NCBI GenBank assembly: GCA_018895075.1
Contig: JAHIOW010000056.1
Span: 1 to 40,437, forward strand
Length of the DNA: 40,437 bases
Direction: 5' to 3'
Source of the DNA: Candidatus Omnitrophota bacterium
GTDB lineage: Bacteria; Omnitrophota; Gorgyraeia; Gygaellales; Profunditerraquicolaceae
Positions within the stretch are counted from its first letter, which is position 1, and each line of letters starts with the position of its first letter. The notes under the pieces were generated by a model. The model worked only from the letters and a program-made list of their open reading frames with translations. It ran no database searches and had not been told where the DNA came from. Shown one piece after another: positions 9,711-24,392 of the stretch. Position numbers and translations under genes: made by a program.

Positions 9711-9895
9711 GTGAGGCCGCGACTTAGCGAACAAAAGTGAAGCTAAGTCGTTTGGCCGAACTTACCCCTCACTCAGCCAGCAGCAAAGAAAGCTATGGTT
9801 TTCTGAGTGAGGGGTTAAATTCGCGCAAAATAACTTACTTCGTATTTCATACTCCCTGCCTGCCGGCAGGCAGGCGTAAGTTATGCGCTCATTTA
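9708..9895 (+). repeat. structured palindromic element, copy A
   Basis: This 188-nt element lies between the amaP-like stop and the phosphofructokinase ribosome-binding site. Nested pairings: an outer TAAGTGAG (9708-9715) with CTCATTTA (9888-9895), one G-U; GGCC plus CGACTTAGC (9715-9728) with GCTAAGTCG plus GGCC (9742-9757); CCCCTCACTCAG (9765-9776) with CTGAGTGAGGGG (9803-9814); ATAACTTAC (9830-9838) with GTAAGTTAT (9876-9884). The core 9756-9828 is 71/73 identical to copy B at 23342-23414 (opposite strand). The last hairpin holds a separate 20-bp palindrome. It is either a mobile palindromic element or a structured leader. The frame through it happens to be open and fused to the enzyme gene, which I regard as accidental. 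Confidence 0.85.
9855..9874. repeat. 20-bp perfect palindrome, copy 1
   Basis: CCTGCCTGCCGGCAGGCAGG is a perfect inverted repeat and recurs at 27304-27323. Here it lies inside the apical part of the last hairpin of element A, where copy B has no equivalent, so it looks like a secondary insertion. Confidence 0.9.
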
Positions 9896-9910
9896 AGGAG
9901 GAATTTATTT

Positions 9911-10942
9911 ATGGCAAAGATCGGCATACTTACAGGCGGTGGCGATTGCCCCGGCTTAAACTCAGTAATCAGGGCAGTAGTGAGAAAAGGCTTCAAGGAA
10001 GGATATGAGATTATCGGTATTAGAAACGGCTGGAAGGGTTTAATTGAGAATAATGTTGTAACATTAAGTTTTGCCTCTGTTTCCGGGATATTGCCTAAAG
10101 GTGGCACGATATTAGGCACCAGCCGCACCAATCCCTACAAAAAAGAAGGCGATACCCAAAAAGTAAAAGATAATTTTAAGAAATTAGGGCTCCATGCTTT
10201 AATTGTTGTGGGCGGCGAAGATACCCTGGGAGTAGCCGCCAGATTAATCAAAGACGGCATTAGCAATATTGTGGGCGTGCCCAAGACAATAGATAACGAC
10301 CTTTCCTGTACAGACTATACCTTTGGATTTGACACAGCCATAAATACGGCTATGGAGTGTATTGATAAACTGCATACCACCGCAGAAAGCCACCACCGTA
10401 TTATTGTCGTGGAGGTAATGGGCAGGCATGCGGGCTGGATTGCCATTGAAGCCGGGATTGCCGGCGGCGCAGATGTGATTTTAATCCCTGAGCTACCCAT
10501 TGACATTGAAGAAGTATGCGGTTTTATAAAAGAGAGGCATCAGAGAGGCAAGACATTCAGTATAATTGTGGTAGCCGAAGGCGCTAAATTTAAAGAGGGG
10601 ACTCTGGTGGTGCAGGAAGAAAAACTGGATGAGTTTGGCCACATCAGGCTTGGCGGTATAGGTGAAACCCTGGCCACAGAGATAGAAAAGAGGACTCATT
10701 ACGAAACCAGGGTGAGCGTCCTGGGCCATATTCAAAGAGGCGGCGCTCCCACTGCCTTTGATCGGGTTCTGGGCACCAGGTTCGGAGTAAAGGCAGTAGA
10801 ATTAGTGAAGGATAAGAAATTTTCCAGGATGGCAGCCTTGACCGGAAATAAGATTATAGATGTGCCTATAGAGGAAGCAGTGCGCGAGTTAAAAACAGTG
10901 GATATGGAACTTTATGAAATCTCAAAGGTATTCTTTGGTTAG
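9911..10942 (+). CDS. pfkA: 6-phosphofructokinase, probably pyrophosphate-dependent
   Basis: From the ATG at 9911 the protein has 343 residues. AAGGAGG at 9895-9901 fixes this start. Motifs: ILTGGGDCPGLNSVIRAV at the N-terminus, IVVGGEDTLG, VGVPKTIDNDL with catalytic Asp128, and EVMGRHAGWIA. It phosphorylates fructose 6-phosphate in glycolysis. The two residues that separate donors are Asp104 (in GGED) and Lys125 (in PKTIDND). Classical ATP enzymes have Gly at both positions, whereas pyrophosphate enzymes have Asp and Lys. I therefore infer a reversible PPi-dependent enzyme of the group III type. The reading frame extends 58 codons upstream through repeat element A, but that part has no family similarity. 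Confidence 0.93.
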   Translation: MAKIGILTGGGDCPGLNSVIRAVVRKGFKEGYEIIGIRNGWKGLIENNVVTLSFASVSGILPKGGTILGTSRTNPYKKEGDTQKVKDNFKKLGLHALIVVGGEDTLGVAARLIKDGISNIVGVPKTIDNDLSCTDYTFGFDTAINTAMECIDKLHTTAESHHRIIVVEVMGRHAGWIAIEAGIAGGADVILIPELPIDIEEVCGFIKERHQRGKTFSIIVVAEGAKFKEGTLVVQEEKLDEFGHIRLGGIGETLATEIEKRTHYETRVSVLGHIQRGGAPTAFDRVLGTRFGVKAVELVKDKKFSRMAALTGNKIIDVPIEEAVRELKTVDMELYEISKVFFG

Positions 10943-22042: not shown

Positions 22043-22474
22043 CTCCACCTCATCCGCAGTAATCCGCCCCACAGTTGCTTCCTTAATTACATCGCCTTCT
22101 TTGACCACCCGGTTATTTATTAAGGCATACCTGGTATCGTCTGATAAAAATACGCCGCTTAAGACAAATTGAGCTTCTTGAGCCTGCGGTTGCTTCTTAA
22201 TTGCGGAAATTACAGTAGCGGCTTTGGTTTCTTCCGGGATAATCGGAGTTACCTCTTTAGCTGACTGTTGCCCTGGTGCTGATGCCGGGATTGGTGCTCT
22301 CCTGAACAGGAGGTTAAAAGAAACATTGGCGATAAGGAATCCCACGCATACTATCCCCAGGTACAATAAATAAATCTTAAATTTAGGGCTGGTTTTTTTA
22401 TCGGTCTTGGGGCTCGCCTGGGGATTGGGGTGCGTGGCCTCAACTTTTTTTAAGGCATCATATATGATGCTCAT
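22004..22474 (-). CDS. GspB-like type II secretion assembly protein
   Basis: This 156-residue protein starts MSIIYDALKKVEA, the hallmark of GspB proteins (MSYILDALRKAE type). One membrane helix follows (YLLYLGIVCVGFLIANVSFN, about 35-55), then a Pro/Ala linker and a C-terminal T2SSB-like domain (FVLSGVFLSDDTRYALINNR ... VELQLGDAVIKLSL). GspA/GspB help the outer-membrane secretin assemble through peptidoglycan. The ATG overlaps the gspA stop by 4 nt. No other secretion gene is present in the window. Confidence 0.85.
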   Translation of the reverse strand: MSIIYDALKKVEATHPNPQASPKTDKKTSPKFKIYLLYLGIVCVGFLIANVSFNLLFRRAPIPASAPGQQSAKEVTPIIPEETKAATVISAIKKQPQAQEAQFVLSGVFLSDDTRYALINNRVVKEGDVIKEATVGRITADEVELQLGDAVIKLSL

Positions 22475-23295
22475 TTTTCTACTTTCTGAAATTTAGGATT
22501 CAATTCCGCAAGGCACTCCTCTATTATATCCGAATCTATTATACCGGTCTCCTTGATGAATCCGGCTAACAGGGCGCGGTCGCAGATGATATTAATCAAA
22601 CGGGGCATGCCGCCGGAGAAAGCACATATCGCCTTTAAGGCCTGGTCAGTAAATTTTATCCTGGTTCCGGAGCCGGCGATATTCAGGCGGTGATTTATGT
22701 AATCCTTTACCTCATTTTCCTCTAGCGGCGTAATATGATACCTGACCATTATCCGCTGTTTGAGTTGCCGCAGTTCATAAAGGTCTAAGCGGTAGTTTAA
22801 CTCCGGCTGGCCCACCAGTACAATCTGGATTAACTTGTGCTTCTCGGTCTCTAAATTTGAGAGCAGGCGGATCTGTTCCAATGCCCGCGGCCTTATGTTT
22901 TGCGCCTCGTCAATGATGAGCACGATATTATTGCCGTGCCTGGACTCGTTTAATAAAAATTTATTCAGTTCCCAGACAAAAGAAAAGCGGGTTTTGTCCC
23001 GCGCGTGGATGCCAAAATCTTTGATGATTGCCTCCAGCAATTGAACCTCGGAAAAATTGGGATTGAGTATAAACGCGGTCTTGACATCTTTGCCTAACTG
23101 GTTGAGGAAAAAACGGCAGAGGGTAGTCTTTCCCGCGCCTATCTCTCCGGTGATGACCAGGATGCCTTTTCTCTGGGTCACGCCGTAGAGAAGGTGCGCC
23201 AGCGCCTCCTTGTGTTTTCCGCTTAGGAAAAAGAAGGAGGGGTCAGCGGTAACGTTAAACGGCCTGTCCTTTAATCCATAGAATTGACAATACAT
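22471..23295 (-). CDS. ExeA/GspA-like AAA ATPase
   Basis: This 274-residue protein starts MYCQFYGLKDRPFNVTADP, as ExeA proteins do. It has Walker A VITGEIGAGKTTLCRF, Walker B NIVLIIDEAQN, and arginine-rich sensor segments (QIRLLSNLE, GGMPRLINIICDRALL). The C-terminal peptidoglycan-binding domain of full ExeA is missing, as in many short homologues. I prefer the ATG at 23295 over one at 23310 because the family begins exactly there. Its 5' region is element B and the promoter at 23492-23519. Confidence 0.88.
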   Translation of the reverse strand: MYCQFYGLKDRPFNVTADPSFFFLSGKHKEALAHLLYGVTQRKGILVITGEIGAGKTTLCRFFLNQLGKDVKTAFILNPNFSEVQLLEAIIKDFGIHARDKTRFSFVWELNKFLLNESRHGNNIVLIIDEAQNIRPRALEQIRLLSNLETEKHKLIQIVLVGQPELNYRLDLYELRQLKQRIMVRYHITPLEENEVKDYINHRLNIAGSGTRIKFTDQALKAICAFSGGMPRLINIICDRALLAGFIKETGIIDSDIIEECLAELNPKFQKVEK

Positions 23296-23297
23296 TT

Positions 23298-23492
23298 TAA
23301 ATGAGCACATAACTTACGAACACGTTAGTGTGAGTAAGTTATTGTGCGAATTTAATCCCTCACTCAGAAAACCATAGCTTTCTTTGCTGCTGGCTGAGTG
23401 AGGGGTAAGTTCGGATATATAAGTTATGTTTCAGCCGCAGGCTGATCCGCCTTCGGCGGACGCTATCGCTCCATAACTTATGTCCTCACTTA
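23298..23492 (-). repeat. structured palindromic element, copy B
   Basis: Read on the minus strand, this 195-nt element has the same plan as copy A. Outer TAAGTGAG (23492-23485) pairs with CTCATTTA (23305-23298). Then come ATAAGTTATG with CATAACTTAT (+ coordinates 23472-23481 and 23419-23428), enclosing two small hairpins (TCCGCC/GGCGGA and CAGCC/GGCTG); CCCTCACTCAG with CTGAGTGAGGG (23394-23404 and 23357-23367); and ATAACTTAC with GTAAGTTAT (23334-23342 and 23309-23317). The core 23342-23414 matches copy A at 71 of 73 positions. The element ends two bases before the gspA ATG. Confidence 0.85.
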
Positions 23493-23529: not shown

Positions 23530-23748
23530 CAAATAGACCTGCATAGATAATCAATAGCGGGTCCTGTCGAGGCGTGCTTCTCGCCGCACCGCTTGATTTT
23601 CCCCAGCGTGGAAAATCTGCGCTCGAGCGAAAACTCTTGCTCTGCCAGACTTTGTAAATAGCTGGGCAACCGTGCCCGCAAGAGTTTTCTAACGTGCTGC
23701 TCGAAGCACACCTCGCCACCCGCTAAAAACATCAAGAATGCCTATTTG
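23530..23748. repeat. structured palindromic element C
   Basis: This 219-bp stretch without a credible gene folds on itself as nested arms. CAAATAG (23530) pairs with CTATTTG (23742-23748). GCAT (23541) pairs with ATGC (23738). TAGCGGGT (23555-23562) pairs with ACCCGCTA (23718-23725). GAGGCGTGCTTC (23569-23580) pairs with GAAGCACACCTC (23703-23714), 11 of 12. Inside lie GATTTTCC/GGAAAATC (23595/23610), the palindrome CGCTCGAGCG (23620-23629), AAAACTCTTGC/GCAAGAGTTTT (23630/23678) and GGGCA/TGCCC (23664/23673). Its sequence is unrelated to A and B but the branched plan is alike. Confidence 0.75.
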
Positions 23749-23967
23749 ATAACGAACCTGGCGATATTTCGAGCGAATGGAGGTTTTAGCCAATGGAGCT
23801 TGAGTATTTCGGGAATCTCCGTGGAGCGAAGCGACAAAACGGGGATGGCGATGCTGTCTGAGGAGCATTTGCTAGAGCAAATGCGACGAGTTCAGCAGCC
23901 ACCGAAATGCGAAAGATCATTGGCGTTAAAAAACCGACTTGAGCGAGAAAATCGCCAGGTTCGTTAT
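23749..23967. repeat. structured palindromic element D
   Basis: This directly abuts element C. Its ends form a perfect 17-bp inverted repeat (23749-23765 with 23951-23967, starting ATAACGAACC). Further in: GGTTTT/AAAACC (23782/23930), GCCAATG/CATTGGC (23789/23918), GTATTTCGG/CCGAAATGC (23804/23902, one G-U), then two branches, ATCTCCGT/ACGGGGAT (23815/23839, one G-U) and GGC-TGCTG/CAGCA-GCC (23847/23893) capped by GCATTTGCT/AGCAAATGC (23865/23876). Length equals that of C (219 bp). An open frame runs across it on the + strand but looks like chance. Confidence 0.78.
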
Positions 23968-23998: not shown

Positions 23999-24027
23999 TT
24001 GACAGGCGGATAAATATATGTTATAGT
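23999..24027 (+). promoter_or_regulatory. promoter of the PilZ gene at 24048
   Basis: TTGACA (23999-24004) and TATAGT (24022-24027) are separated by 17 nt. The start would be near 24034, leaving a very short leader that contains the Shine-Dalgarno GGAGGGGAG before ATG 24048. Confidence 0.75.
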
Positions 24028-24047: not shown

Positions 24048-24392
24048 ATGGATACAAATTTTCAGGAAAAAAGGAGTTCCCCTCGTGTAAAACTGCAGAG
24101 GCCTTTGCGTTATCAACTGAGAGGCCTCCCTGAGTTTAATAATGTCATTGGTGATAACATCAGCACCGGTGGAATAGGTTTTTTCAGTGATAAATTTATC
24201 GCCCCTAACACATTGACAATGCTGGAAATCAATATATTATCCCGGATGCTCAGGGCTGTAGGAAAGATTGTCAGGTCAGTGTATTTATCGCACTCTAATA
24301 AATATTATTTAGGTATAGAGTTCTTAGAGTTAGACCCAATAGAACAAATGTATCTGGGTGATTTTATAAATATGCAAAGGACTAGATTCTAA
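24048..24392 (+). CDS. PilZ domain protein
   Basis: This 114-residue protein is a single PilZ domain. The c-di-GMP motif is present: EKRSSPRVKLQ (RxxPR) near the N-terminus and GDNISTGGIGFFS (NxSxxG) about 25 residues later, followed by beta strands KYYLGIEFLEL. Such proteins bind cyclic di-GMP and pass the signal to partners in motility, secretion or polysaccharide synthesis. It is divergent from the gspA/gspB pair and has its own promoter. Confidence 0.9.
   Translation: MDTNFQEKRSSPRVKLQRPLRYQLRGLPEFNNVIGDNISTGGIGFFSDKFIAPNTLTMLEINILSRMLRAVGKIVRSVYLSHSNKYYLGIEFLELDPIEQMYLGDFINMQRTRF

What the first reader, a model, noticed from the sequence alone, without database searches (positions are those of the whole stretch)
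23530..23748. Element C: a 219-bp cruciform-like palindrome built of at least eight helices
Outer to inner, seven or more arms pair over 219 bp, including an 11/12 and a perfect 11-bp arm, with internal hairpins. A random sequence would not give so many nested arms in register. Its sequence is unrelated to A and B. It contains alternative pairings (GGGCA/TGCCC versus TGCCAG/CTGG), so it might switch.
Basis: seen in the sequence. Interest (0 to 1): 0.7.

Follow-up and report, generated by a model that had tools for sequence, protein, structure and literature searches.

The report
Omnitrophota mobile repeat with conserved fold
The palindrome is real: it is one copy of a roughly 170-220 bp mobile, non-coding repeat found so far only in the bacterial phylum Omnitrophota, whose base-paired core has been kept by matching mutations across the phylum while its ends and insertion sites differ.

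Summary
Element C (23530-23748) is real and far from chance: folding z about -7 on both strands. It is not a one-off cruciform but a member of an apparently undescribed multi-copy repeat family. A covariance model of it hits 114 of 285 genomes of the phylum, often many copies each; an exact-pattern scan of 84,980 species hits 27 stretches, 25 titled Omnitrophota/Omnitrophica and 2 of one untitled MAG. No Rfam family matches. The core shows massive compensatory change (covariation 0.455 versus 0.06-0.09 when slid). The family is mobile: at this locus the divergent ATPase-PilZ spacer is 65-305 bp in 20 relatives and 738 bp here, C plus B lying between the two promoters; the cysS-tmk junction is empty in many relatives and holds C, in either orientation, in 23 of 85. 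In one genome C copies have 9-bp target duplications and ends like those of its own IS256-type transposon. Best reading: a non-autonomous MITE-like element moved in trans. What moved the window copy, and why the fold is kept (ssDNA or RNA of the minus strand), are open. The 'switch' idea found no support.

The parts
23530..23748 (-). Element C, whole palindrome; structured strand is the window's minus strand
   Evidence: z -7.05 / -7.62; arms
23559..23722 (-). Conserved core of the family (match to covariance model R1, 143.7 bits)
   Evidence: covariation
23629..23689 (-). Inner helix with perfect 12-bp arms 23629-23640/23678-23689, enclosing the variable apical hairpin (TGCC...GGCA type)
23749..23967 (.). 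Element B, separate palindromic module abutting the 5' side of C (minus-strand sense); B-like modules occupy the same place in about 14 C loci of other genomes
   Evidence: z -6.93
23296..23490 (.). Element A, another palindromic repeat, in the leader of the ATPase gene; many partial relatives in the same genome
   Evidence: z -9.22; 57 matches in own genome
23492..23519 (-). Promoter-like site TTTACA-16-TATAAT of the ATPase gene, directly beyond the C insertion
   Evidence: consensus scan only; box retained in relatives' empty sites
23999..24027 (+). Promoter-like site TTGACA-17-TATAGT of the PilZ gene, beyond the B end of the insertion
   Evidence: consensus scan only; box retained in relatives' empty sites
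22471..23310 (-). AAA-ATPase gene (ExeA/GspA-like), left flank of the insertion
   Evidence: PF13401, E 9e-27
24048..24392 (+). PilZ-domain gene, right flank of the insertion
   Evidence: PF07238, E 3.3e-9

Best explanation
Element C is a copy of an Omnitrophota-specific non-autonomous mobile repeat (MITE/ERIC-like). It carries no gene; its roughly 165-nt core folds into a long interrupted stem with internal hairpins; it inserts into intergenic DNA, often beside other palindromic modules such as B, and is moved in trans by transposases. Shown: insertion (empty and filled orthologous sites), multi-copy spread, near-identical copies at unrelated sites, a covarying fold, and in one genome 9-bp target duplications with ends like those of its IS256-type transposon. 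Inferred: that a transposase acting in trans also moved the window copy, and which one. Here C plus B came to lie between the two divergent promoters of the ATPase and PilZ genes. The fold is probably kept because a protein recognises it in one strand (ssDNA or RNA) during mobilisation or in a transcript; this step is inference.
For: Family across the phylum: 75 of 97 genomes of the family, 114 of 285 of the phylum, phylum-restricted exact pattern. Fold: 96.9% of cells paired, 30 of 36 pairs with double changes, covariation 0.455 against 0.154 shuffled and 0.06-0.09 slid. Insertion at this locus: spacer 65-305 bp in 20 relatives, 738 bp here, no C in 29 relatives' loci. Insertion at cysS-tmk: genes overlap in 16 genomes, C present in 23 of 85 loci, three reversed. 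Within-genome near-identical copies sharing only the core. G231: exact 9-bp duplications AACCCAAGC (L105), TTAGTTTTT (L110), TGATTAGGA (L263); resident IS256-type element with matching ends and its own exact 9-bp duplication TGTAGCGGA. Orientation to genes neutral: 35 sense, 37 antisense.
Against: Outside G231 no target duplications above background, so old copies or another mechanism. Most tested genomes of the window's family lack Transposase_mut; no mobiliser identified there. A fold kept with so much compensatory change at phylum scale is more than a simple MITE needs. Some cysS-tmk insertions are shared between genera and so are old and retained.
Confidence: 0.82

Rival explanations
1. 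A functional structured non-coding RNA present in many copies, with mobility only as the way it spreads.
For: Strong covariation; G-U above A-C on one strand, 92 to 28, or 58 to 27 without the two richest columns; conserved unpaired blocks; some insertions retained across genera.
Against: No expression data; in the window the two promoter-like sites read away from C; orientation to genes random; absent from many complete relatives; ssDNA recognition would give the same strand bias.
Confidence: 0.12
2. A cis-regulatory leader (riboswitch-like) of the downstream gene.
For: Some copies end 12-30 nt before a start codon in the sense direction, including 17 full-length sense copies before tmk.
Against: As many antisense as sense copies (37 against 35) and no consistent gene class; tmk copies also reversed, and often absent.
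Confidence: 0.02
3. A REP/BIME-like element mobilised by Y1 (RAYT) transposases, which act on one strand's hairpins.
For: Y1_Tnp genes in 20 of 21 genomes tested; strand bias; mosaic neighbours; no target duplication in most genomes.
Against: No C copy within the fetched flanks of 30 Y1 loci; G218 has at least 9 C copies and no Y1 match; Y1 genes also occur in genomes without C hits.
Confidence: 0.1
4. Chance palindrome or ordinary transcription terminator.
For: Intergenic position.
Against: z about -7; homologues with covariation; no terminator-like site in the region; flanking genes are divergent.
Confidence: 0.01

Closest known systems
Bacterial MITEs such as Correia and ERIC (review PMC10969869)
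   Same: Short, gene-free, intergenic, palindromic, multi-copy; stem-loop-forming; in G231 with inverted ends and 9-bp target duplications beside a matching IS.
   Different: Elaborate junction-type core with phylum-wide compensatory change; ends differ between lineages; no duplications visible in most genomes; no sequence relation claimed.
bcr repeats of the Bacillus cereus group (PMC6542083)
   Same: 100-400 bp lineage-specific chromosomal repeats with mobile features and no known autonomous partner.
   Different: bcr mobility is linked to TTTAT motifs in that paper; C is spread over a phylum and has IS256-like ends in one genome. Sequence relation not tested.
REP/BIME elements with RAYT (Y1) transposases (PMC3733652)
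   Same: Palindromic intergenic modules in mosaics; Y1 proteins in the same genomes.
   Different: REPs are 20-40 bp; C is about 165-220 bp and was not found beside Y1 genes.
IS256 family (Transposase_mut, PF00872)
   Same: G231 C copies share terminal motifs and 9-bp duplications with the resident element.
   Different: Only shown for G231; most tested genomes of the window's family lack the transposase.

Membership tests
MITE-like non-autonomous element | Short and without a coding gene | tested here: met
   Core about 165 nt; boundaries from pairwise comparison of copies; no annotated-type ORF spans C in the window
MITE-like non-autonomous element | Multiple dispersed copies | tested here: met
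   the window's own genome has only two full copies
MITE-like non-autonomous element | Insertion shown by empty orthologous sites | tested here: met
MITE-like non-autonomous element | Terminal inverted repeats | tested here: met
   Outer arms complementary, though sequence varies between copies
MITE-like non-autonomous element | Target-site duplications | tested here: inconclusive
   Exact 9 bp in G231; none above background elsewhere, none seen at the window copy
MITE-like non-autonomous element | Ends matching an autonomous transposon | tested here: inconclusive
   Met in G231; no partner found for the window's family
REP/RAYT | Repeats flank the Y1 transposase gene | tested here: not met
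   0 C hits around 30 Y1 loci
Known RNA family (Rfam 15) | Match at or near a family's gathering score | tested here: not met
Structured non-coding RNA | Covariation beyond controls | tested here: met
   also expected for ssDNA hairpins under selection
Structured non-coding RNA | Transcription of the element | not testable with these tools
   No expression data; promoter-like sites near C read away from it

The most novel reading that the evidence does not exclude
The core is a functional RNA or ssDNA module older than its present ends: a phylum-specific folded domain carried by different transposon ends in different lineages and itself recognised by a host or transposition protein.
Probability: 0.2. 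Interest if true: 0.8.

Novelty: new variant of a known kind. Interest (0 to 1): 0.5.

Why it matters
Omnitrophota are known almost only from draft MAGs, and no description of their small mobile repeats turned up in the literature searched. A repeat that keeps an elaborate covarying fold across a phylum while its ends and sites change is unusual for MITE-like elements and asks directly what selects for the fold. It also offers natural insertions, one between two divergent promoters and many at cysS-tmk, for studying effects on neighbouring genes, and it should be masked or modelled when non-coding RNAs are predicted in these genomes.

Tried and rejected
Rfam at gathering and permissive thresholds: nothing relevant. 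Y1/RAYT partner: genes present, none beside C. Switch by pairing of the 5' arm with the apical loop: no excess over permuted pairs. General target-duplication scan over 115 copies: clear signal only in G231; the best other hits are homologous tmk sequence or short. Locus-specific complementarity of the outer arms: significant over the first few nt beyond the core only (z 5.3, then 3.8, then not significant). Cis-regulatory leader: orientation neutral. Viral carriage: no exact pattern match in IMG/VR. Autonomous copy by following partial C copies in G231: the three loci whose ORFs were listed (L260, L263, L268) show no transposase; it was found instead by the Transposase_mut family search. Literature on such repeats in Omnitrophota: none found.

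Full report
OBSERVATION. The 219-bp palindrome is there and is not chance. Both strands fold far better than dinucleotide shuffles (z -7.05 and -7.62, none of 200 as good), also with DNA parameters (z -7.30). The arms are as described. The neighbours A (z -9.22) and B (z -6.93) are likewise palindromic.

A REPEAT FAMILY. The window's own genome holds a second copy, 74% identical over the matched part, between cysS and tmk on another contig. With that copy as query, 75 of 97 genomes of the same taxonomic family had matches (most are partial, and palindromic repeats of other kinds may add some weak ones). Thirty copies were aligned and 23 trimmed ones made the covariance model R1. R1 hit 114 of 285 genomes sampled across the phylum at E <= 1e-5; only ten candidates per genome were scored, so copy numbers are lower bounds. 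An exact pattern from the 3' half of the core, run over one genome for each of 84,980 species, hit 27 stretches: 25 titled Omnitrophota or Omnitrophica and 2 from one MAG titled only 'bacterium'. Viral contigs had none. Rfam has no such family.

FOLD. On 98 distinct copies 96.9% of paired cells are standard pairs, 30 of 36 pairs have double changes, and the covariation score is 0.455 against 0.154 for shuffles and 0.06-0.09 when partners are slid. That alignment was fitted to the model and leans towards it, but RNAalifold on the plain MAFFT alignment already gave 21 of 30 pairs with double changes. G-U exceeds A-C 92 to 28 on the window's minus strand, 58 to 27 without the two columns richest in G-U. 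Copies are related, so the counts are not independent; a strand-symmetric process would give equal numbers. The constraint thus seems to act on one strand, as RNA or as ssDNA. Unpaired blocks such as GCGGGCAYGG and AGAGCGAG are strongly conserved.

MOBILITY. (1) This locus. The ATPase gene (PF13401) and PilZ gene (PF07238) are divergent neighbours in 20 relatives with spacers of 65-305 bp, against 738 bp here; none of 29 relatives' loci holds C. Comparison of flanks places C plus B between the -35 boxes of the two promoters, while A sits in the ATPase leader, where A-like inserts also occur in two relatives (L308, L311). (2) cysS-tmk. The genes overlap in 16 relatives, but C lies between them in 23 of 85 loci, three times reversed and three times as a remnant; other repeats fill the gap elsewhere. 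Nearest neighbours and a tree show that some of these insertions are shared and old, others are closer to copies at other sites. (3) Near-identical copies (98.8% for L097/L098) at unrelated sites share only the core, about -3 to +159 of the model match. (4) In G231, of another family in the class, C copies have longer arms and 9-bp target duplications, exact in L105, L110 and the deletion derivative L263. G231 encodes a complete Transposase_mut protein whose element has similar terminal motifs (GGTAGTATAC..., TGTGTAAATT) and its own exact 9-bp duplication. This partnership rests on sequence; transposition was not shown.

NOT EXPLAINED. In the window's family no partner was found: most genomes tested there lack Transposase_mut, and Y1 proteins, though common, are not beside C copies. 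Outside G231 no target duplications rise above background. Apical hairpins are shared between otherwise different cores in G010, which looks like gene conversion (inference). B-like modules sit on the 5' side of C in about 14 other loci, resembling BIME mosaics; whether B and C move together is unknown. The innermost few bases of the flanking arms are complementary copy by copy more than permuted pairs, for which no mechanism is shown.

CONTEXT. Among 100 copies with heuristic gene calls, 35 were sense and 37 antisense in codirectional spacers, 17 in divergent and 3 in convergent spacers. This speaks against a cis-regulatory leader and for tolerated intergenic insertion.

COMPARISON. It works like a MITE, and meets the features of short size, no gene, many copies and empty sites. 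Target duplications and a matching autonomous element are met in one genome and unresolved in the window's own family, so membership there is provisional. It is not a known Rfam RNA and does not show the gene arrangement of REP/RAYT systems.

VERDICT. Element C belongs to an apparently undescribed, phylum-restricted family of mobile palindromic repeats with an unusually conserved fold. Mobility is well supported; which enzyme moved the window copy, and why the fold is kept, are open.

Noticed in passing
23296-23490 (element A): Another palindromic repeat (z -9.22) with 57 full or partial matches in the 1.05 Mb genome; A-like inserts occupy the same ATPase leader in two relatives (L308, L311).
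   Followed up: partly
23749-23967 (element B): Palindromic module that recurs on the 5' side of C copies in about 14 loci of other genomes; possible B-C composite.
   Followed up: partly
9756-9839: A copy of part of element A lies within ORF 9737-10942; the likely start of the phosphofructokinase-like gene is downstream (MAKIGILTGGG), so the ORF's first part is probably not coding.
   Followed up: no
L163, L206, L226, L246, L093-L095: Another repeat module (GGCRAAAATTTTCAGC...GGAAGCRAA type) fills cysS-tmk in other genomes or lies 5' of C copies.
   Followed up: no
L002:1470-1500 and L053: A small palindrome CCTGCCTGCCGGCAGGCAGG is inserted inside the C core of two copies, a nested repeat within the repeat.
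   Followed up: no
L065, L120, L053, L049, L126: Pairs of C copies in divergent orientation, from 5 to about 1450 bp apart, recur in several genomes.
   Followed up: no
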